This document shows positions 19,137 through 44,172 of a DNA stretch of 64,000 bases, one piece after another. Position 1 is the first letter of the stretch. Each line of letters opens with the position of its first letter. The stretch lies in the NCBI GenBank assembly GCA_021555105.2, contig CP134604.1, positions 2,604,001 through 2,668,000 of the forward strand. Reading direction: 5' to 3'. The notes beneath the pieces are model-generated. The model searched no databases, was not told where the DNA came from, and was given only the letters and a program-made list of their open reading frames with translations. The translations under genes and the position numbers were made by a program. The DNA is from Thalassospiraceae bacterium LMO-JJ14 (lineage in GTDB: Bacteria; Pseudomonadota; Alphaproteobacteria; Rhodospirillales; Casp-alpha2).

Positions 19137-19712
19137 ATGACCGAGCCGATCCTCATCGCCATGACCGGTGCGTCCGGGGCCATCTATGGCATCGAGACGC
19201 TGCGCCTGTTGCGCGACATCGGCCAGCCGGCGCATCTGATCCTGTCCGAGGTCGCGCGCCGCACCATTGAAATCGAGACCGATGTCGGCATCGACGAAAT
19301 CAAGGCGCTGGCCGAGGTCGTGCATTCCAACAAGGATCAGGCGGCATGCGTGTCCAGCGGCTCGTACCGGACCCGTGGCATGCTGATCGCGCCGTGTTCC
19401 ATCAAGACGCTGTCGGGCATCGCCAACAGCTACGCCGACAACCTGATCATCCGCGCCGCCGACGTGTGTCTGAAGGAACGCCGGCGTCTGGTGCTGATGG
19501 TCCGCGAAACCCCCTATCATGCCGGTCATATCGACCTGATGCGCCGCGCCACCGATGCCGGTGCGGTGATCTTTCCGCCGATGCCGGCATTTTACGCGCG
19601 CCCGAAAAGCATCGAGGAACTGGTGCGCCAGAGCGTCGGCCGCGCGCTCGACCTGTTCGGGATCGAGCACGAGCAAATCAACCGCTGGATGGGGCCGGAT
19701 AAACACGAATGA
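19137..19712 (+). CDS. ubiX: Flavin prenyltransferase
   Basis: The 191-residue enzyme attaches dimethylallyl phosphate to reduced FMN to make the prenyl-FMN cofactor needed by UbiD-type decarboxylases in ubiquinone synthesis. Diagnostic stretches are IAMTGASGAIYGIETLR for FMN binding, LSEVARRTIEIE, APCSIKTLSGIANSYADNLI and VLMVRETPYHAGHIDLM. The ATG at 19137 follows CAGGAGAACCGC. ubiD is not in the window. A strong hairpin lies just after the stop. Confidence 0.94.
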   Translation: MTEPILIAMTGASGAIYGIETLRLLRDIGQPAHLILSEVARRTIEIETDVGIDEIKALAEVVHSNKDQAACVSSGSYRTRGMLIAPCSIKTLSGIANSYADNLIIRAADVCLKERRRLVLMVRETPYHAGHIDLMRRATDAGAVIFPPMPAFYARPKSIEELVRQSVGRALDLFGIEHEQINRWMGPDKHE

Positions 19713-19821: not shown

Positions 19822-19847
19822 TGACGAGAAAAAATTAGAACGCGGCT

Positions 19848-19889
19848 CTAGAGCACCGGGCCCTTTTGCACCATCGCGACGAAGTCCGC
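19848..19889 (-). pseudogene. Remnant of an EAL-gene 3' end (candidate attachment site, left)
   Basis: Read on the minus strand, this segment encodes A-D-F-V-A-M-V-Q-K-G-P-V-L and a TAG stop. The intact EAL gene ending at 24573 finishes A-E-D-F-V-A-M-V-N-K-G-P-A-L and TAG. Over the 39 bases that align without gaps I count 31 identities; at least five of the differences are synonymous, so this is a true coding tail from a related gene, not chance. It is cut off from any body of the gene. It and the intact end bracket the AT-richer island. Confidence 0.65.
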
Positions 19890-20084: not shown

Positions 20085-22121
20085 TTGAAAAACACTCGCG
20101 ACACTCCGCGAAAAGAAAATTCTGATGGCACTGAGTTTATTGGCAGCCGCGAAGGCTTATCAGCGTTCTTAGCAGATGAATCAAAGGTCGGTTCGATTGC
20201 GCGGACACGTTTAAGGGCAAGTGATCGCGTAATAGCTAGAGTTACAGATGGAATTTATCGTCAACCAGGTTCCGCGCTTCGAGAATTGATTTCGAACGCT
20301 TGGGATGCCGATGCCAATCGCGTCGATGTGTTTACGGATGTTCCTCGTTTTTCGAGCATTCGGGTCACTGACGATGGTGCCGGGATGTCGTACGAGACTC
20401 TTGCGCGTCTATTGACGAGCATAGGTGGAAGCGCAAAGCGAACGAAAGAAGCTCGGGAACTCGGGGTTTCTGACAAATATGACACAAACCGAACACCGGG
20501 GGGGCGGCCATTTATCGGTAAAATCGGGATCGGGCTCTTTGCTGTTTCACAATTGGCAAGGACCGTGAAATTGGTAACGAAACGCTCAGGTACCAATTAC
20601 CGCCTTGTCGCAGAAATAAAAATTCGACCATTCTCCGAGTCAGATCCAGCGTCACAGGATGATGGTGATGATGATACCTTTGCAAATGGTGATGTCCTGA
20701 TTACCCGAGAACTTGCAGATGATGATGAAGCCCATGGCACAGATATTTTTCTCTCTGATTTGAAGCCAAGAGTTCGCGAGATGCTCCGTAGTGCGGATCG
20801 ATGGCGAGATATCGACGAACAAAACGAATACTTAAAAGCTCTTGATTTTGAAGCTGCGTCTGCAATGCGCGTTGAAGTGCCTAGTTACCACTCCGGCTGG
20901 ATAGCCAAAATGCCATCCAAAGGTGAAGTTACGGCAGTCTTAGATGAACCAGCCAAGTATCCATGGGAAGCCCAAGATTGTGCATTGACGCGCATGACCA
21001 AATTGGTAGATGCCGTTGAAGCCGAGTTTGCAGAAAGCCGTGCTCGTCCAGATTTGGCTAAAACTCTTGATACTTATTTAGAGATGATATGGACCTTGGC
21101 GTTGTCTGCGCCGGTCCAGTACATAGATCGACATCCATTTGACCTTACCTCAGAAGACGAAACAGATGTTTATTGGCTCTCGAACCAAAGCCGCGGCAAG
21201 GCAACTTATGTTGAACTAAAACCGCACGAAACCATCAGGCAAGCAGTAGCGAGAAGAGCCCCCGGCAATCCAAACTTGGAAAGCGGCTTGGATGCCGTTG
21301 AGGGCGGCTTTAGCGTCTATGTCGATGGAATAGAATTACGGCGCCCTGTGAGGTTTCGTTTCATTCGGCCAGATGGTCGTGGGTTTATGGACCGGTCTAT
21401 GATGTTCGTTGGGCGCTTTGCGCCTGACCTATCAAATGTCGCCCCAGATTTACGCGGCGGCGATCTAGCCTTTGAAGCATATCTCTTCTGGAATGGACGG
21501 ATAGTGCCAAAAGAAAATAACGGTGTCCTCGTTCGTATTCGAGGCGCAAGTGGTGCGCTCTTTGATCCATCATTTTTTAAATACCAAGTCTCTGAACAAA
21601 CAAGATTGCGGCAGATAACCTCCGAACTCTTTGTAGATCATGGATTAGATGCAGCTCTAAACATTGACCGTGAAGGTTTTAATTTTGCTCATCCGCATGT
21701 CCAATTAGCAACTGTGTGGCTTCATCGTGCAATTAAACAACTCACTAATCGACACAAAGAGTTAGGTGCGCAGAGAAGAGCAGGAAGACGAGAAGAAGAG
21801 AACGATGCGGTCCAGTCATTTGCTGACAAAATTTGGTTATCGCAGCGCTCTGACGAAGAACCCCCTCAAATTCAGATTGCTCGCGACGAAGGAAGTGCTC
21901 GTTCTATAAGGCGAGACGGGTACATGACATTTTCACGAGATAAATTGCCGATACTGAATACTGGTTCTGCTCTTCAGAAAAGCGAAAGAGAATCGAAAGC
22001 AATAGCGATAGCAAAAATATTGGCAGCGTTCGGGGTGTTTGATGAAAAATCTTATACAGAACAACAATCGCTAATTAATTCGATCCTCGCTGTATTTTAT
22101 GGGTCGAGTAAAAATGAGTGA
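20085..22121 (+). CDS. GHKL (MutL/MORC/Hsp90-like) ATPase of a defence cassette
   Basis: The 678-residue protein has a Bergerat-fold ATPase at the N-terminus: ELISNAWDADA (67-77), VTDDGAGM (94-101), GKIGIGLFAVSQLA (145-158) and a GTDIFL motif (218-223). The rest has no recognised nuclease domain; a C-terminal helix-rich part contains NIDREGFNFAHPH. TTG at 20085 is the start, since a stop lies in frame nine bases before it and the first in-frame ATG falls after the ATP site. MutL/MORC-like ATPases paired with DNA methylases are known in restriction-modification operons. The next gene overlaps its stop. Codon use is AT-richer than in the flanks. Confidence 0.85.
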   Translation: MKNTRDTPRKENSDGTEFIGSREGLSAFLADESKVGSIARTRLRASDRVIARVTDGIYRQPGSALRELISNAWDADANRVDVFTDVPRFSSIRVTDDGAGMSYETLARLLTSIGGSAKRTKEARELGVSDKYDTNRTPGGRPFIGKIGIGLFAVSQLARTVKLVTKRSGTNYRLVAEIKIRPFSESDPASQDDGDDDTFANGDVLITRELADDDEAHGTDIFLSDLKPRVREMLRSADRWRDIDEQNEYLKALDFEAASAMRVEVPSYHSGWIAKMPSKGEVTAVLDEPAKYPWEAQDCALTRMTKLVDAVEAEFAESRARPDLAKTLDTYLEMIWTLALSAPVQYIDRHPFDLTSEDETDVYWLSNQSRGKATYVELKPHETIRQAVARRAPGNPNLESGLDAVEGGFSVYVDGIELRRPVRFRFIRPDGRGFMDRSMMFVGRFAPDLSNVAPDLRGGDLAFEAYLFWNGRIVPKENNGVLVRIRGASGALFDPSFFKYQVSEQTRLRQITSELFVDHGLDAALNIDREGFNFAHPHVQLATVWLHRAIKQLTNRHKELGAQRRAGRREEENDAVQSFADKIWLSQRSDEEPPQIQIARDEGSARSIRRDGYMTFSRDKLPILNTGSALQKSERESKAIAIAKILAAFGVFDEKSYTEQQSLINSILAVFYGSSKNE

Positions 22122-23349
22122 GATCGACGATCAGAGTGAAGACCCAGCAGAAGACATTGACGCAGTTTTTGGAGATGATCCACAACTAGCGAATGAAACA
22201 TATTTGACCGAGCTTGTGCAAAAGAAGCGGGAATTCGCGCCTTGGCACCATCCAGTCAAACAGATCGTTCGTATTGAACAATGGGCCAGCCTAGCCAATC
22301 GTTTAATAAGAGATAGAGATTTCAATAGTCCGCTACGGTATTTCACTTTACCAGGACCAGATTTATTGGATGTCCGAGTCCTTGCTGAAGTTTGTGCAAA
22401 GAAAGGCATCTCTATTGATTACTTTGGGTTTAACTCTTCGATTGCTACGGTTCCCGGGCAATCTGGACATGTCGAATCCGATAGAATATTTATGGCGGAG
22501 TCAGCAATACGACAAAGTGGGGTTAGCACACCAACAGCCTATATCATGCCTGATAGATTAGAAGACATAGCGAACCAAGAATCACATGCTTTTGCAAAGC
22601 TACAGCAACAACAGCCATTTGACATAGTAAATATTGATGCATGCAATCACCTAGCCTTTCGATCAGAAGGAAGACAGCACAGCATCTTTGATGCATTAAA
22701 TTCACTCCTTCGTCATCAAATGCCAGCAAAAGCACCTTGGCTCCTTTTCATCACAACTCGCGCTGAACCTGCTTTACTGGATGACACGGCCGTAGAATTT
22801 GACCGGGCAATAGCAGAAAATCTTCGTATATCTGCTGATAATTTCGGGCAGGCTCTTGCTGAAGCAATTGGAGCACCGAGAAATAATATAGGTGCTGCGC
22901 TGAAGGCAGTCTGGACAAGAAATGATATTGAATTTTTAAAAATATTTACAATTGGTTTGTCCAAATATTTACTTCAATATTTTCATACGCAACCAAATCT
23001 TAGGGCAGGTGTCGAGTTAGCGAGCGCATATTGCTATAGAGTTTACGGGCCGGCTCCTGATATGGCAGCTCTCGCATTCCGCATCACTCCAGGTGGTGTC
23101 CAAGCTATTCAACCAATGGCTTCTGGAGCAGTCGTCATACCTGATCTTGAAGAGCAACAAGCCATCAGAGTTGTGCAGAAAGCTGCCAAAATAAGAAATA
23201 TTGATGAGTCGTTGGAAAGCGATGAAGGATTGCGAAAATCCGCAGTTGATGGAACAAAAATCCTCTTAGGAGGTTCAAATTACGACCTTGATGCATGGGA
23301 GATATGGGTAACTGAGCATTCTGAACGCCCAATAAGGATAAAAGCATAA
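22114..23349 (+). CDS. Unknown protein of the GHKL ATPase cassette
   Basis: The 411-residue protein overlaps the ATPase stop by eight bases, so the two are made together. It has an acidic N-terminus, then a pattern reminiscent of a Rossmann/methyltransferase-like core: YFTLPGPDLLDVRVLAEVC (about 76-94), ISIDYFGFNS (99-108) and FDIVNIDACNHLAF (169-182). The usual glycine-rich SAM loop is not clear. The C-terminal half has no recognised motif, and no PD-(D/E)XK or HNH nuclease signature is seen. A role as effector or specificity factor of the cassette is inferred from linkage only. Confidence 0.8.
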   Translation: MSEIDDQSEDPAEDIDAVFGDDPQLANETYLTELVQKKREFAPWHHPVKQIVRIEQWASLANRLIRDRDFNSPLRYFTLPGPDLLDVRVLAEVCAKKGISIDYFGFNSSIATVPGQSGHVESDRIFMAESAIRQSGVSTPTAYIMPDRLEDIANQESHAFAKLQQQQPFDIVNIDACNHLAFRSEGRQHSIFDALNSLLRHQMPAKAPWLLFITTRAEPALLDDTAVEFDRAIAENLRISADNFGQALAEAIGAPRNNIGAALKAVWTRNDIEFLKIFTIGLSKYLLQYFHTQPNLRAGVELASAYCYRVYGPAPDMAALAFRITPGGVQAIQPMASGAVVIPDLEEQQAIRVVQKAAKIRNIDESLESDEGLRKSAVDGTKILLGGSNYDLDAWEIWVTEHSERPIRIKA

Positions 23350-23378
23350 ACTTCTGGATGAGGGGGCGGCCACAACCA

Positions 23379-24431
23379 TTACGCGGCAGATTTTTGGCGT
23401 GTGTCTTTAGCTTTGTCTGGCCCAATAAATTGCTCAGAGATTGAGTCGGCAATTGCCTTCGCTAATGGTGGGGGCACCGCCTCACTTACCTGATCAATTT
23501 GAGACGAAAGCGTTCCGAGCAATTGATATTCATTTGGGAATCCCTGCAGCAACATTGCCTCATATACACTCAAACGCCTATGGCAATTAGGATGAACATG
23601 GACTTCTCTGTTGCCATAAGCGACCGTAAGACTTGGTTTATTCCAGTCTAAAACTTTAAAGCTGCGCTTGCTACTATCACCAGATCGCAATGCTCCTGGT
23701 GTATGGAATCGAGAAGATACGGGGTTCATACACCAGTGATTTGGATGTTCTGGGTTTTGCTGAGCATCAATGCCACGCTTGAAGTACATAGGTTCCTTTA
23801 ATCGCCCAATGGAATTTTTGACGGTAAGGTTATTGGTTGACTTCATGGATGGTTCAGGGCTCTCCCATATGGAGTTTGAGTAAATTGATCGATTGATACC
23901 TACTACAATTAGGCGTTTTCGCTTTTGTGGAATTCCAAAATCTACGGCATTCAACTCGGCTGAAGACACAGCGAAACCAGCACTCTCAATAGCTTTAATA
24001 AATGCATTATACTTAGCCTCATGCTTGCCCTTTGAAAAACAAGTGACATTCTCAAATACTAGAAAATGGACAGGATTCCGATTGTTCAAATCTCGCAGAA
24101 CTCGGACATACTCTAAAGGCAATGAATGTCTGGGGTCATTTGGGTCATATGCAGAGCGATTGGCTTTACTAAAACTTTGGCACGGCGATCCGCCAATAAT
24201 ACCAATTGGTTTAAATATTCCACCAAAATCAGAATCAATTTTTTTCAGCGTAACTTTGCGAATATCAGCGACGTAGCCATTGTTATCGGGTGCGCGGTTG
24301 TAATTGTAGGAAGCAATACTGTCTGCATTGATGTCATATGCTACGGGAATTTTGAACCCGGATTGTTCAAAACCCAAATCCATCCCACCAGCCCCCGCAA
24401 ACAAACTCAGAAGCACGCCTTTTTCTCCCAA
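23379..24431 (-). CDS. DNA (cytosine-5) methyltransferase
   Basis: The 350-residue enzyme shows all key M5C motifs in order: LSLFAGAGGMDLGF (motif I), GGSPCQSFS with the catalytic Cys (motif IV), VFENV (VI), QKRKRLIVVG (VIII), RRLSVYEAMLLQGFP (IX) and VSEAVPPPLAKAI (X). It methylates cytosine in an unknown DNA target; the target-recognition part lies at about 215-275. It faces the two plus-strand genes and ends 29 bases from the second. As there is no classical endonuclease beside it, the partner genes may provide restriction. Confidence 0.95.
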   Translation of the reverse strand: MGEKGVLLSLFAGAGGMDLGFEQSGFKIPVAYDINADSIASYNYNRAPDNNGYVADIRKVTLKKIDSDFGGIFKPIGIIGGSPCQSFSKANRSAYDPNDPRHSLPLEYVRVLRDLNNRNPVHFLVFENVTCFSKGKHEAKYNAFIKAIESAGFAVSSAELNAVDFGIPQKRKRLIVVGINRSIYSNSIWESPEPSMKSTNNLTVKNSIGRLKEPMYFKRGIDAQQNPEHPNHWCMNPVSSRFHTPGALRSGDSSKRSFKVLDWNKPSLTVAYGNREVHVHPNCHRRLSVYEAMLLQGFPNEYQLLGTLSSQIDQVSEAVPPPLAKAIADSISEQFIGPDKAKDTRQKSAA

Positions 24432-24572: not shown

Positions 24573-26255
24573 CTACAGCGCCGGTCCCTTGTTCACCATT
24601 GCGACAAAATCTTCCGCCGTCAGCGGTTCGCTGATCAGGTAACCCTGCACCTCGTCGCAGTCGCGCCAGCGCAGATAGCTGAGCTGCTCTTCCGTCTCGA
24701 CGCCTTCGGCGACGACGTTCATTTCCAGGCAATGACCGACGGCGATGACCGCCGAGGCCAGACCGCCGCCTTCGGGCTTGCTGATGTCGCTGACGAAGGT
24801 GGTGTCGATCTTGATGCCGTCGAGGGGGAAATTGCGCAGATAACTGAGCGAGGCATAACCGGTGCCGAAATCGTCCGCCGACAGGTGCACGCCGAGCGCG
24901 CGGATGTCACTGAGCGAGCGTATGACGTCCTCCGCGCCTTCCATGACGGCGCTTTCGGTGATTTCCAGTTCCAGGGAGTCCGGCTCGATCCCGGTCTCGT
25001 TCATGATCTGCACCAGATCGTCATAAAACGACGAGCGGGCGATTTCACGGGCCGAGACGTTGACCGCGATCCTGAGGAAGGGCATGCCGTTTTTCTGCCA
25101 GCCGGCGAGCGTTTCGCAGGCTTCGAGCAGCACCATCCGGCCGATCGGATCGATCAGCCCGGCATCCTCGGCAAGCGGAATGAAGTCGGCCGGCATGATG
25201 ATGCCGGAATCCGGGTCCTGCCAGCGCACAAGCGCCTCGGCGGCGACGATCTCGCCGGATGCCAGCGATACCTTCGGCTGGTACATAAGCTGCAATTGCC
25301 CGTCCTCGATGGCGCGGCGCAGCTTGTTGACCCGGGAACGGCGTTCGCGGATCTCGACGCCGGTGGAGTTGCTATAGAACTGATACGTGCCGGCGCCGGT
25401 CTGCTTGGCCAGGTCGACGGCGGTTTGCGCATGGCCGATCAGCTCATCCGCATCGTTACCGCTCTCCGGCGCTTCGGCAATGCCGACACTGGCCGTCAGC
25501 AGGATCGGGGCGCGCACCCCCTTGATCTGATACGGGACCGCGATGGCGGCGATCAGCCGTTGCGCCACGGCATTGATCTGTTCATGGCTGCGGATGTCGG
25601 AAATGGCGACGATGAACATGTCTTCCTGCAACCGGCCGATGATGTTCGATGCCCGTAGGCTGCGTCCGAGCCGGCGCGCCGTCTCGATCAGGACCTGATC
25701 GCCGGCGGCGCGGCCGTGTTCGCGGTTGACGGCGTCGAACCCGTCGAGATCGAGACACAGCAGGGTCACCTGACGCTCGCCGTTCTTTGCCGCCTGCAGA
25801 TCGAGGCTGAGGCGGCGGATCACCAGATCGCGTCCCGGAAGACTGGTCAACGGATCGTAGGTGGACGTATCTTTTCCGGCGCCACTGTCGGTTACATCCA
25901 GTACCCGAGCCGTCGCCACCCAGCCAGCGATCCCGCCCAGCCGGTCATAGGCCGGGTTGAGCTGCAGACGGACCGTTCTGCCGGGCAATGCTTCAAGCCT
26001 GGCTTCCCAGGCACAGCCATTGACGATGGCATCATCGATTTTGGCCGCCGCCGGTTTCATGACCTCGGCCAGCCTGCGCCCGAGCAACTTGCTTTGATGC
26101 GTTTCCAGAAGTTCTTCCATGCCCGCGTTGACCGATGTAATGCGCGCTTCGTCATCGAGGGTTGCGCACGCATCCTCCATCAGATGTAAAAGCGCCGACA
26201 TGAACACGGCGTCTCTTTCTACTGATTTTGCGGGTGGCGTATCGGATGGCGGCAT
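24573..26255 (-). CDS. PAS-GGDEF-EAL protein, likely c-di-GMP phosphodiesterase
   Basis: The 560-residue cytoplasmic protein has a PAS-like sensor (about 15-120), a GGDEF domain (130-300) and an EAL domain (310-560). The GGDEF signature has decayed to Q-E-D-M-F at 210-214, so cyclase activity is unlikely. The EAL domain keeps E340-A-L, VNVSA, LEITES, DDFGTGYASLSYL, KID and VAEGVET, so phosphodiesterase activity is expected. Its last codons (AEDFVAMVNKGPAL) have a diverged copy at 19848-19889, which suggests a foreign element once inserted into this 3' end. Confidence 0.9.
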   Translation of the reverse strand: MPPSDTPPAKSVERDAVFMSALLHLMEDACATLDDEARITSVNAGMEELLETHQSKLLGRRLAEVMKPAAAKIDDAIVNGCAWEARLEALPGRTVRLQLNPAYDRLGGIAGWVATARVLDVTDSGAGKDTSTYDPLTSLPGRDLVIRRLSLDLQAAKNGERQVTLLCLDLDGFDAVNREHGRAAGDQVLIETARRLGRSLRASNIIGRLQEDMFIVAISDIRSHEQINAVAQRLIAAIAVPYQIKGVRAPILLTASVGIAEAPESGNDADELIGHAQTAVDLAKQTGAGTYQFYSNSTGVEIRERRSRVNKLRRAIEDGQLQLMYQPKVSLASGEIVAAEALVRWQDPDSGIIMPADFIPLAEDAGLIDPIGRMVLLEACETLAGWQKNGMPFLRIAVNVSAREIARSSFYDDLVQIMNETGIEPDSLELEITESAVMEGAEDVIRSLSDIRALGVHLSADDFGTGYASLSYLRNFPLDGIKIDTTFVSDISKPEGGGLASAVIAVGHCLEMNVVAEGVETEEQLSYLRWRDCDEVQGYLISEPLTAEDFVAMVNKGPAL

Positions 26256-40909: not shown

Positions 40910-43900
40910 ACAAAGTCCTTCGGCATCTGCTTGAGAACGTCAGCGGCGGGTCCGAAAGCACGTACGTTCCCGTATTCGAGCCATAAAATCTTATCGGCGA
41001 GACGAAGGTGGCTTGGACGGTGCGTCACCATCAGAATTGTCGTATCGCCGCGCATCCGATCCACGTTCTTCATAAATGCCTGATCGCTTGCGAAATCAAG
41101 ACCGTTGCCAGGCTCATCGAACAACATGATCGGTGAACGTTTGAGGTAACCCCGCGCCAGATTGAGCCGCTGCAGCAAACTGGTCGGCATTTGTCCGGAA
41201 CTGGAATCGCCGATGCGGACTTCGAAACCGTCCCGTTTCCATTTCCCCGAACCTTGTGTCAGTGCCAGGACATCGTCGAGCACACTCGCCATTTCACAGG
41301 CACGATAAATATCCTCGTCCGTCGCTGTCGGATGCGCCAGGCGCAGGTTCTGCGCAATCGTTCCATAGAAGAACTGAACAGTCTGCGGCACATAGGCAAC
41401 GGCATGGCGAAGCTCGACCGTATCCATCTGACGAATATCCATGTTGTCGATACGGATCGAACCTGCTTGCGGCGCATACATGCCTGCCAGAAGTTTCAAC
41501 GCAGTCGATTTACCGGATCCGTTCCCGCCGACAATACACAGAACTTCTCCGGGTTCGAGATCGAAGCTGACACCGACCAGAGCCGGGTCGCTATCCGGGC
41601 TGTAGCGGATCGAAACCCGGGCAAAAGTCACAAACCCCTCAATCTGTTTGATCGGATTGACCAGCGTATGCTGTTCGCGCTCACCCTTGATATTCATCAG
41701 GTTGTTGATCTGTGCGATCGAGGATTTCACCTGTGTCAGGCGCGTCAGCGAGATAAAGCCGGTCTGCAGCGGCGCCAGAACCCGCCACACAAGAATCATC
41801 GACGCCACCAGCCCGCCAACTGACATATCACCGTTCATGACCCGGAATACACCGAAAATTATGGTCCCCAATCCGGCCGAGATCATTAAAACATGCGAAA
41901 TCGTCTGCATCAGCGCGGAAAGCTGTGCCGTATAGAAACTGTTGAGAGCTGCCGTCGCCGAGTATTCGCGGAACCGCTCCATCCATTTTTCTTCTGCGCC
42001 GCAGTACTTGACCGCGCGCATACCGCTGAGGGTTTCGACGATCAGTTCCTGTTTCTTGGACGATGCGCGCGCCGCACGGCCGACCGAATGACGCAGCAGT
42101 GGCGTTATGATCAGCCCAAGGATGAAGAAGCACGCCATCATGATGACAGATATGAAAACCACCGGCCCGGCTAGCGCGGCAATGGTTATGATGAAGATGA
42201 ACACGAACGGCAATTCGAACAGAACAAGTGCCATGGGGCCCGTGAAGAAGTCGCGGATCGTTTCAAAATCCTTGATACGGGCAATCTGTGCACCAATCGT
42301 CGCACGCTCGGTAAATGTCGGTGGCAGGAACAGAATTTTGTGGAAGATGGCAATGCCGATAATGTTGTCCAGCCGGGCGCCGATGAACGCCATGATCTTC
42401 GATCTGATCATGCGCAGGATAATATCGCAGCCGATTGCAATGCCGACACCGAAAGCGAAGAAAGCCAATGTCGGTAACGAGCCTGTCGCCACAACCTTGT
42501 CATAGACCGCCATCACGAACAGCGGCGTCACGAGCGCCAGAATATTGAGTATGAAGGTAATCCCGAGTGTTTGATAAACCAGTGCACGAAAACGTTCCGT
42601 GACCGCACGGAACCAACCGAGCTTGGTTTGGGTTGACTGTATTTCGTCTGTATCGACGGGACTGAAGAAATATACCGTGCCGCGCATTTCACTACGCGGC
42701 ATCACACGTTCCTGATTCATACCGCCATCGAAAACGCGCAAGCCATCCGGCTCATAGCTCAGCAAAATGACCGCATCGCCTTCTTCAGGAAGATACAGGC
42801 ATGGGAACAAGCGCGGATCGATTTTCGTCAGGCGCATTTTCACAGGGCGGCTCTGGTAGTGCAGCGTCGCCATGATATTTCTGAACGAGGTGATATCGAG
42901 CTCGTTCGTGAAGTGAGGTAACGCTTCGGCAATATGGCGTTTGTCGCCGCGCCAGTTCAGTGCCTTCAGCAATTCCAAAAGACAGATCGAAAGATCTGTC
43001 GCTTCCTTCAGCGAGGCCAAGGCCGGGTCACTGTGCGCCGGCGGACCTTGTTCCGGCAAAGGCATTGGCCGCGGCACTTCCCCGCCACCATCTCCCCCCG
43101 AGCCGCCGGGTGGTGCCGGGGGCAGCGGTGGCATTGCAGCACGTTCGGTTACTGCCGTCGGCACACCATCCGCCGGGGAAGTATGCTCGTACTTGGGCAG
43201 CGGCTCGAACACACCGGGCAATGCAGGAAGCGGTGGTGGCGTATGCGGAGTCTTGGCCGTCCCTGGCGCATTGACTTTCGGCGACGGCGGCGCGGAAGGC
43301 TGCCTTGCCTGTGGTTGAGCTGGTTGCGGTGTGCGGGGCGATGGCGGCGCTTTTCTGGCCGCCGCCTGCGGCGGGGCCTTTGCGGCAGGTTGTGCGGGCT
43401 GCTGTTTGCGCTGCAGTTTTTCCGGCAATCCGACGCGGCGACGCCCGTCATCCGGCGGCGGCTGACTTGCTGCGGGCTTCGCAGGTGCAGGTGCTGAAGG
43501 CTGTTTTGGCGCAGCCTTTGGTTTGCGCGGTGTTATTGCGTCAACAGCCTGTTCTTTGCGTTTACGCAGGCGGGGCGGCACGCGCCCTCCCTTGGCCGGT
43601 GCCTGAAGCGCAGCCAAGGCCTTGTCAGCGAGGGCGTCGCGTTCTTCCTGTGTTTGCGCAGGCTTTTGTACGGGCTTTTGTGCTGCTCTTTGTACGGGCG
43701 GTTTCTCTGGCTGTTGGCGTGCAGCAGGGGCAGGTTTGCGGGCGGTTTGCGGGCTGACTTTCGGAGCAGAAGCAGGTGCGGACTTCGACGCCGGTGTTTC
43801 CGTTCTTGGCGTCGTTTCGCGTTCCATTTTTACATTAGGACGTGGCCCTCTGGCTGAGCTTCCGGCAACCGATGGCGACTCCGGTCTTTTGGCCGCAGGG

Positions 43901-44172
43901 CGTTTGCGTGCCTCGATCGGCGGCATGGGAACGCCTCGTTCATCGCCGGATGCGGGCTGAGCGGCAGCTGCCCCAGGCGATTGCGCTGCGGACGGTTGAC
44001 CGGAAGGTGCCGGACGGGCTTGCGGCGGCCGTGGTCTGTTTTCAATGCGTGGCTGTTTTGTGGACGAGCTATCTCTGTCACCGAAGACCCTGTCTACGGC
44101 GGTATCGACAGGCTCGACAACGCCGTCTTCGGCGTCATCCAGTGCTTCGATTTTTGAGAGTATACCGCTCAT
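40906..44172 (-). CDS. Type I secretion ABC exporter with long Pro/Ala-rich N-terminus
   Basis: The 1088-residue protein has about 390 N-terminal residues made mostly of Pro, Ala, Lys, Arg and Gln, then a C39-like peptidase-fold domain without clear catalytic residues (about 390-510), a six-helix membrane domain (530-820) and an ATPase domain. The ATPase keeps Walker A GGNGSGKST (882-890), the signature as SSSGQ (990-994), Walker B IMLFDE (1015-1020) and H-loop His1051. Usual exporters of this type lack the long disordered start. A second ABC exporter is encoded just upstream, with which it may pair. The substrate is unknown. Confidence 0.9.
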   Translation of the reverse strand: MSGILSKIEALDDAEDGVVEPVDTAVDRVFGDRDSSSTKQPRIENRPRPPQARPAPSGQPSAAQSPGAAAAQPASGDERGVPMPPIEARKRPAAKRPESPSVAGSSARGPRPNVKMERETTPRTETPASKSAPASAPKVSPQTARKPAPAARQQPEKPPVQRAAQKPVQKPAQTQEERDALADKALAALQAPAKGGRVPPRLRKRKEQAVDAITPRKPKAAPKQPSAPAPAKPAASQPPPDDGRRRVGLPEKLQRKQQPAQPAAKAPPQAAARKAPPSPRTPQPAQPQARQPSAPPSPKVNAPGTAKTPHTPPPLPALPGVFEPLPKYEHTSPADGVPTAVTERAAMPPLPPAPPGGSGGDGGGEVPRPMPLPEQGPPAHSDPALASLKEATDLSICLLELLKALNWRGDKRHIAEALPHFTNELDITSFRNIMATLHYQSRPVKMRLTKIDPRLFPCLYLPEEGDAVILLSYEPDGLRVFDGGMNQERVMPRSEMRGTVYFFSPVDTDEIQSTQTKLGWFRAVTERFRALVYQTLGITFILNILALVTPLFVMAVYDKVVATGSLPTLAFFAFGVGIAIGCDIILRMIRSKIMAFIGARLDNIIGIAIFHKILFLPPTFTERATIGAQIARIKDFETIRDFFTGPMALVLFELPFVFIFIITIAALAGPVVFISVIMMACFFILGLIITPLLRHSVGRAARASSKKQELIVETLSGMRAVKYCGAEEKWMERFREYSATAALNSFYTAQLSALMQTISHVLMISAGLGTIIFGVFRVMNGDMSVGGLVASMILVWRVLAPLQTGFISLTRLTQVKSSIAQINNLMNIKGEREQHTLVNPIKQIEGFVTFARVSIRYSPDSDPALVGVSFDLEPGEVLCIVGGNGSGKSTALKLLAGMYAPQAGSIRIDNMDIRQMDTVELRHAVAYVPQTVQFFYGTIAQNLRLAHPTATDEDIYRACEMASVLDDVLALTQGSGKWKRDGFEVRIGDSSSGQMPTSLLQRLNLARGYLKRSPIMLFDEPGNGLDFASDQAFMKNVDRMRGDTTILMVTHRPSHLRLADKILWLEYGNVRAFGPAADVLKQMPKDFV

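What the first reader, a model, noticed from the sequence alone, without database searches (positions are those of the whole stretch)
20085..24431. Three-gene GHKL ATPase / unknown protein / cytosine methylase cassette, candidate undescribed restriction-type defence system
Seen: a 678-residue Bergerat-fold ATPase with a TTG start, an overlapping 411-residue protein without recognised domain, and a convergent complete cytosine-5 methyltransferase, all in an AT-richer block. Known: MutL/MORC-like GHKL ATPases have been described next to DNA methylases in restriction-modification operons. Inference: the ATPase and unknown protein act together as the restricting half while the methylase protects self DNA. 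No helicase/DUF1998 (DISARM) or PglZ/BrxC (BREX) gene is present, and no nuclease motif is visible in either protein.
Basis: partly seen in the sequence, partly recalled or inferred. Interest (0 to 1): 0.72.

Follow-up and report, generated by a model that had tools for sequence, protein, structure and literature searches.

The report
GHKL-ATPase and MTase-fold restriction cassette
A small mobile gene cassette pairs a DNA-methylating enzyme with a two-protein machine (an Hsp90/MORC-like ATP clamp and an unstudied partner shaped like a methyltransferase) that has travelled together across many bacterial phyla, most likely as an anti-virus restriction system with an unknown way of stopping foreign DNA.

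Summary
Window 20085-24431 holds a 678-aa GHKL ATPase (TTG start), a 411-aa protein overlapping it, and a convergent, motif-complete C5-cytosine methyltransferase. The block is 45% G+C in a 57% window, and congeners have an empty site there.

The 411-aa protein is not unclassified: it belongs to NCBIfam NF047698 ("PP_RS20740 family", no function given). AlphaFold2 (pLDDT 90.5) gives it a class I SAM-methyltransferase fold with atypical but invariant motifs.

I found 53 distinct relatives outside the window, in about seven phyla and in prophages. All 51 with upstream sequence have the same GHKL gene directly before it. The pair co-diverges (Mantel r = 0.94), and in 398 genomes neither gene occurs without the other. 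A C5-methyltransferase lies within 1.5 kb in 44 of 48 well-flanked loci, sometimes with Vsr. No helicase or nuclease recurs, and no PADLOC model recurrently matches the partner.

Best reading: a mobile restriction-modification-type cassette of the MORC/paraMORC-associated kind, with the pair as restricting half. Defence, DNA recognition and the cutting or blocking step are inferred. This is a new variant of a known kind.

The parts
20085..22121 (+). GHKL ATPase (678 aa, TTG start): Bergerat ATPase domain about 44-230, S5/Hsp90-middle-like domain to about 535, long helix 537-587, small mixed C-terminal part. Motifs E67-x3-N71-x2-D74, D96-x-G98-x-G100, G145-x2-GIG and NIDRE 526-530 are conserved in 49 relatives.
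22114..23349 (+). Obligate partner, NCBIfam NF047698 (411 aa from ATG 22114; ORF open from ATG 22099). Class I SAM-methyltransferase fold, with invariant PWHxPxKQxxR, LPGxDxxD and NxDxC in 51 relatives (second aspartate/first D of LPGxDxxD is D in 49, E in 2).
23379..24431 (-). C5-cytosine DNA methyltransferase (350 aa, TTG start), motifs FAGAGG, PCQ, ENV, QKRKRL and the C-terminal block present; convergent with the pair.
   Evidence: motifs read
19845..19889 (.). Second, divergent copy of the 3' end of the neighbouring GGDEF/EAL gene, on the far side of the cassette; looks like a scar of insertion at that gene's 3' end. Congeners have no cassette between the flavin-prenyltransferase-like (ubiX-like) gene (19137-19712) and the EAL gene (24573-26255).

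Best explanation
A mobile three-gene restriction-modification-type defence cassette. The C5-methyltransferase marks host DNA (inferred from family). The GHKL protein is a dimerising ATP clamp built like Hsp90/MORC/MutL (fold and ATP motifs shown by model and conservation; activity inferred). It works as an obligate complex with NF047698 (shown: inseparable and co-diverging; physical contact inferred). NF047698 has a methyltransferase-like Rossmann fold whose ligand-side loops are invariant but lack the standard SAM motifs, so I propose that it reads the methylation state of the target site or base and triggers ATP-driven closure of the clamp on unmethylated foreign DNA (inferred). The last step is either cleavage at an unrecognised active site in the pair, most likely the invariant H50/K54/D88/D91/N178/D180/C182 set, or non-cutting entrapment of the DNA. 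I cannot tell which; I lean to cleavage, at about 55:45. Vsr in some loci repairs the T:G mismatches that 5-methylcytosine produces.
For: Linkage: GHKL gene directly upstream in all 51 distinct loci with sequence there, usually with a 4-base overlap; C5-methyltransferase within 1.5 kb in 44 of 48 well-flanked loci. GHKL and NF047698 found in the same 2 of 398 genomes and in no others. Distance correlation 0.94 for the pair, 0.63 with the methyltransferase. Always C5 type, but from more than one C5 subfamily and on either side, as R-M modules exchange specificities. Vsr near about nine loci. Mobility: prophage cargo beside integrases, low G+C, empty site in three congeners. Folds. Precedent: MORC/paraMORC GHKL proteins occur with cytosine methylases and Vsr in restriction neighbourhoods (PMC2292703).
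Against: No nuclease domain or known nuclease motif was found in either protein of the pair, so the restricting step is unproven. Two well-flanked loci (L041, L048) have no C5-methyltransferase beside the pair, although their genomes hold others. No phage, plasmid or methylation experiment exists. The only published phenotype for a member, furfural tolerance on overexpression of a PP_RS20740 mutant (PMC9630843), says nothing about defence.
Confidence: 0.6

Rival explanations
1. Non-cutting block: the GHKL-NF047698 clamp topologically traps and silences unmethylated DNA as eukaryotic MORCs are thought to compact DNA, and no nuclease is involved.
For: No nuclease domain in the pair and no recurrent nuclease neighbour. 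Model resembles Hsp90, MORC3/MORC2, topoisomerase VI-B and MutL ATPase cores (Z 16.8 TRAP1, 16.1 MORC3, rmsd 3.7-3.8, about 290 aligned).
Against: The fold is shared by chaperones, topoisomerases and repair proteins and does not indicate entrapment. The strictly invariant pocket of NF047698 suggests chemistry or ligand binding rather than a scaffold.
Confidence: 0.3
2. NF047698 is an active SAM-dependent enzyme: the pair is a second modification or maintenance activity helping the C5-methyltransferase, not a restricting half.
For: Class I methyltransferase fold, best Z 13.8 to tRNA methyltransferase Trm1, 226 residues at 4.0 A. Loops at the SAM side are invariant.
Against: The acidic residue at the end of strand 1 is T/S/G in all 51 and the GxGxG loop is LPGxD; the strand-2 acid position is N in 29 and D in only 6 of 51; motif IV is NxDxC, not a DPPY-type motif.
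Confidence: 0.2
3. A repair module: a MutL-like GHKL protein that works with Vsr and the C5-methyltransferase to repair 5-methylcytosine deamination, without defence.
For: Vsr adjacent in a minority of loci; MutL-like ATPase domain.
Against: Vsr is absent from about four fifths of the loci and lies elsewhere in the window's own genome, beside a different C5-methyltransferase. Patchy, mobile distribution is typical of defence, not repair. The genomes keep ordinary MutL.
Confidence: 0.07
4. A single-protein type II enzyme of the BbrUII/HgiDII kind: the GHKL protein alone cuts and NF047698 is accessory.
For: N-terminal match to NF050001 (69 bits) and to PADLOC REase_II models in 45 of 49 members.
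Against: Match covers only the shared ATPase domain (residues 61-234) at 69 bits against a cut-off of 550; NF047698 is never missing, which does not suit an accessory role.
Confidence: 0.1

Closest known systems
MORC/paraMORC-associated restriction-modification neighbourhoods (Iyer, Abhiman and Aravind 2008, PMC2292703)
   Same: GHKL ATPase plus S5-like domain next to a cytosine methylase, sometimes Vsr; patchy, laterally transferred distribution.
   Different: The published neighbourhoods mostly include a superfamily II helicase or a recognised nuclease; none recurs here. The text does not describe a methyltransferase-fold partner; its figure 2 could not be read here.
HEF_HK / Response_reg_2 duplet with C5-methylase (Bellieny-Rabelo et al. 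2021, PMC8011034)
   Same: Same layout C5-methyltransferase, HATPase_c_3 GHKL, partner, Vsr (loci L092-L095).
   Different: GHKL protein about 1000 aa with a histidine-kinase-like part; partner about 590 aa with a receiver-like domain; hhalign against NF047698 probability 0.2%, GHKL related only weakly (E about 1e-8).
BbrUII/HgiDII family restriction enzymes (NF050001)
   Same: GHKL N-terminal domain; partnered by a C5-methyltransferase in characterised cases (M.HgiDII, M.BbrUII are 5mC enzymes, PMC5867850).
   Different: 69 bits against a cut-off of 550, N-terminal domain only; single protein instead of a pair.
VcSduA, Shedu type I-D (paraMORC3; PMC12137116)
   Same: GHKL ATPase with proven anti-phage role.
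   Different: VcSduA carries a C-terminal PD-(D/E)xK (DUF4263) nuclease and acts alone; no such domain in P0001.
NCBIfam NF047698, PP_RS20740 family protein
   Same: The partner is a member (305.6 bits, cut-off 200).
   Different: The model has no function; it says nothing of the linked GHKL and methyltransferase genes.

Membership tests
NCBIfam NF047698 (PP_RS20740 family) | Score above the curated cut-off of 200 bits | tested here: met
   305.6 bits over residues 37-404
GHKL ATPases | Bergerat ATP-binding motifs N, G1, G2 intact | tested here: met
   PF13589 E 4.2e-14; E67, N71, D74, D96, G98, G100, G145, G148, G150 invariant in 49 sequences
MORC family proper | GhXhhpXXRhl motif in the S5 domain (PMC2292703) | tested here: inconclusive
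   The candidate strand reads YLxWNxKVVP in the family consensus; judged by eye only, no exact match
paraMORC3 / Shedu type I-D | C-terminal PD-(D/E)xK nuclease (DUF4263) | tested here: not met
   No such Pfam match in P0001; C-terminus modelled as a long helix plus a small mainly helical part
BbrUII/HgiDII restriction enzymes (NF050001) | Curated cut-off 550 bits over the whole protein | tested here: not met
   69.3 bits, residues 61-234 only
HEF_HK/Response_reg_2 system | Partner with Response_reg_2 (PF19192) | tested here: not met
   No PF19192 match in P0002 or its relatives; hhalign of NF047698 against four PF19192 proteins gives probability 0.2%
DISARM / BREX | DUF1998 helicase, or PglZ/BrxC, in the locus | tested here: not met
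   Neighbour clustering over all loci: only C5-methyltransferase, Vsr and integrases recur near the pair as plausible genes; other clusters are antisense frames or shared phage and housekeeping genes
Type II-like restriction-modification | Linked DNA methyltransferase | tested here: met
   C5-methyltransferase within 1.5 kb in 44 of 48 well-flanked loci
Type II-like restriction-modification | Linked site-specific nuclease blocked by the cognate methylation | tested here: inconclusive
   No nuclease domain found by Pfam, PADLOC or fold comparison in the pair; activity needs experiment
Class I SAM-dependent methyltransferases (for P0002) | Fold | tested here: met
   Model pLDDT 90.5; the 19 Foldseek matches at E below 1e-3 are SAM-methyltransferases; VIA Z up to 13.8
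Class I SAM-dependent methyltransferases (for P0002) | Acidic residue after strand 1 with GxGxG loop (motif I) | tested here: not met
   T/S/G then LPGxD in 51 of 51

The most novel reading that the evidence does not exclude
NF047698 is a methyltransferase-fold protein turned into the effector (a nuclease or other DNA-acting enzyme with an active site built from PWHxPxKQ, LPGxDxxD and NxDxC), switched on by an Hsp90/MORC-like ATP clamp that recognises DNA lacking 5-methylcytosine: a new chemistry and a new trigger for restriction.
Probability: 0.2. Interest if true: 0.85.

Novelty: new variant of a known kind. Interest (0 to 1): 0.52.

Why it matters
GHKL ATPases have been noted beside cytosine methylases in restriction neighbourhoods since 2008, yet for most of them it is unknown how foreign DNA is stopped. 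This cassette reduces that question to two inseparable proteins and one methyltransferase, with no helicase and no visible nuclease. It is therefore a compact test case for whether a MORC/Hsp90-like clamp can restrict DNA, and a possible prokaryotic parallel to MORC silencing tied to DNA methylation. It also gives a concrete testable role to a curated but functionless NCBI family.

Tried and rejected
A single-sequence scan of genome contigs with P0002 found nothing; an 11-sequence alignment reached 44 loci. tblastn of P0002 or L061's relative in plasmids and phages, and blastn of L067's relative in E. coli genomes, found nothing. Tested whether any part of NF047698 or GHKL co-varies with the methyltransferase's target-recognition region beyond general divergence: partial correlations were at most about 0.2, no usable signal, so which subunit reads DNA is open. 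Vsr as the hidden nuclease was rejected because most loci lack it. A receiver-domain origin of the partner was rejected by hhalign. Weak Pfam and PADLOC hits of NF047698 (NACHT, DUF7863, TniQ and so on, one to three members each) were taken as chance. Foldseek and VIA show only the ATPase and middle domains of P0001 well; its C-terminal 100 residues were not searched separately. Structures of the complex could not be predicted here. Literature searches for this module as a named system were negative in the open-access library held, which lacks many papers.

Full report
1. The observation. The three ORFs are real and lie where stated. P0001 (20085-22121) matches HATPase_c_3; P0003 (23379-24431, minus strand) matches the C5-methylase family and has FAGAGG, PCQ, ENV and QKRKRL. 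P0002 has no significant Pfam or PADLOC match, but it scores 305.6 bits against NCBIfam NF047698, 'PP_RS20740 family protein', cut-off 200. The best start for P0002 is probably ATG 22114 (411 aa), overlapping the GHKL stop; the 4-base GHKL-partner overlap common in relatives points the same way. The block is AT-rich (45.3% G+C against 57.0%).

2. It is an insertion. Three congeners carry the ubiX-like gene and the GGDEF/EAL gene as near neighbours, about 0.2 to 0.6 kb apart, with no cassette; in the window they are 4.9 kb apart. A second, divergent copy of the EAL gene's last 45 bases sits at 19845-19889, on the other side of the cassette, as expected if an element inserted at that gene's 3' end. 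No integrase remains. Sixty relatives from genus, family and order carry only MutL-like or weak GHKL matches.

3. It is a conserved module. NF047698 is rare: 1 of 385 genomes of the class and 2 of 398 of the phylum. A scan of IMG/VR gave 10 loci and a scan of 84,980 species genomes gave 44; after removing duplicates (L018 = L030, L016 = L044) there are 53 distinct loci in Pseudomonadota, Nitrospirota, Chloroflexota, Actinomycetota, Bacteroidota, Planctomycetota and Geobacteraceae. In all 51 loci with sequence upstream, the GHKL gene directly precedes NF047698, mostly with a 4-base overlap. A C5-methyltransferase lies within 1.5 kb in 44 of 48 loci with enough flank and within 3 kb in 46; the others are L041 and L048. 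It stands either upstream on the same strand (27) or downstream and convergent (16, the window's arrangement), with one downstream on the same strand. In a Vibrio/Colwellia/Idiomarina-like group the methyltransferase is a different, longer C5 subfamily. Distances of GHKL and NF047698 correlate at r = 0.94, and of either with the methyltransferase at about 0.63 (no permutation of 2000 reached these). A GHKL profile finds exactly the same 2 of 398 genomes as NF047698. Vsr is the only other recurrent gene of obvious relevance, near about nine loci. Integrases flank several loci, and five IMG/VR contigs have the cassette directly after a phage integrase.

4. Anatomy. AlphaFold2 with 51 relatives gives P0002 a confident model (pLDDT 90.5, pTM 0.88). 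All 19 Foldseek matches at E below 1e-3 are SAM-methyltransferases; the best VIA match is tRNA methyltransferase Trm1, Z 13.8, 226 residues, 4.0 A. The standard SAM motifs are altered: T/S/G and LPGxD(x2)D after strand 1; N more often than D at the strand-2 acid position; NxDxC in the motif IV place. These positions and the N-terminal PWHxPxKQxxR are invariant in 51 of 51 sequences, except the first D of LPGxDxxD (49 D, 2 E). They lie on the loops that form the ligand side of this fold, so the pocket is kept for something; what it binds is unknown. P0001 (pLDDT 87.8) is a GHKL plus S5/middle-domain protein like Hsp90/TRAP1, MORC3, topoisomerase VI-B and MutL (Z 13.5-16.8 over about 290 residues). 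It keeps all ATP motifs and an invariant NIDRE; I compare this, from my own knowledge of the family, with the LNxSRE loop that carries the catalytic arginine of Hsp90. It continues into a 50-residue helix. I found no nuclease domain in either protein.

5. Mechanism. Shown: linkage, co-divergence, mobility, folds, motif conservation. Inferred: the methyltransferase protects self; the pair is a complex; NF047698 recognises the unmethylated target; the GHKL clamp closes on ATP; the DNA is cut by an unrecognised site or trapped. Rivals are listed with their weights. The repair rival is weakened because Vsr is usually absent; the window genome's own Vsr sits by another C5-methyltransferase.

6. Comparison with what is known. 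Iyer et al. 2008 (PMC2292703) described GHKL (MORC, paraMORC) proteins in restriction neighbourhoods with cytosine methylases and Vsr, mostly with helicases or nucleases. Bellieny-Rabelo et al. 2021 (PMC8011034) described a C5-methylase, GHKL and Response_reg_2 duplet; I fetched such loci and found the same order (methyltransferase, GHKL of about 1000 aa, partner of about 590 aa, Vsr), but the partner is unrelated and the GHKL only distantly related. VcSduA (PMC12137116) shows that a GHKL protein can restrict phage, but with its own nuclease. The only paper found naming the family's founding gene concerns furfural tolerance in Pseudomonas putida (PMC9630843). The cassette is therefore a new variant of a known kind. 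I found no earlier description of it as a system, in a library that lacks many subscription papers.

Noticed in passing
G000:C1 about 1537.0-1539.7 kb (L101:4082-6698), outside the window: The same genome has a second, conventional-looking R-M locus: Vsr, C5-methyltransferase, and a 204-aa GIY-YIG-like protein (Eco29kI-like by eye).
   Followed up: partly
L092-L095: HEF_HK/Response_reg_2 loci follow the order C5-methyltransferase, GHKL (about 1000 aa), partner (about 590 aa), Vsr (Vsr in two of four): a parallel architecture with an unrelated partner, so GHKL-plus-partner modules may have arisen more than once.
   Followed up: partly
L048:5645-13970 (Kribbella soli): The actinobacterial pair without a nearby C5-methyltransferase has a NOV_C (PF13020) protein upstream and an HNH nuclease gene downstream.
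   Followed up: partly
L026:2246-4230 and L066:444-2302: GHKL gene split in two frames beside an otherwise complete cassette: inactivated restricting half, or sequencing error.
   Followed up: no
L019, L021, L023, L025, L026 (IMG/VR): Five related prophage contigs carry the cassette directly next to the integrase gene, the usual site for phage cargo.
   Followed up: partly
window 43001-44000: One-kilobase block with 66% G+C and strong AT skew (-0.36), unlike its surroundings.
   Followed up: no
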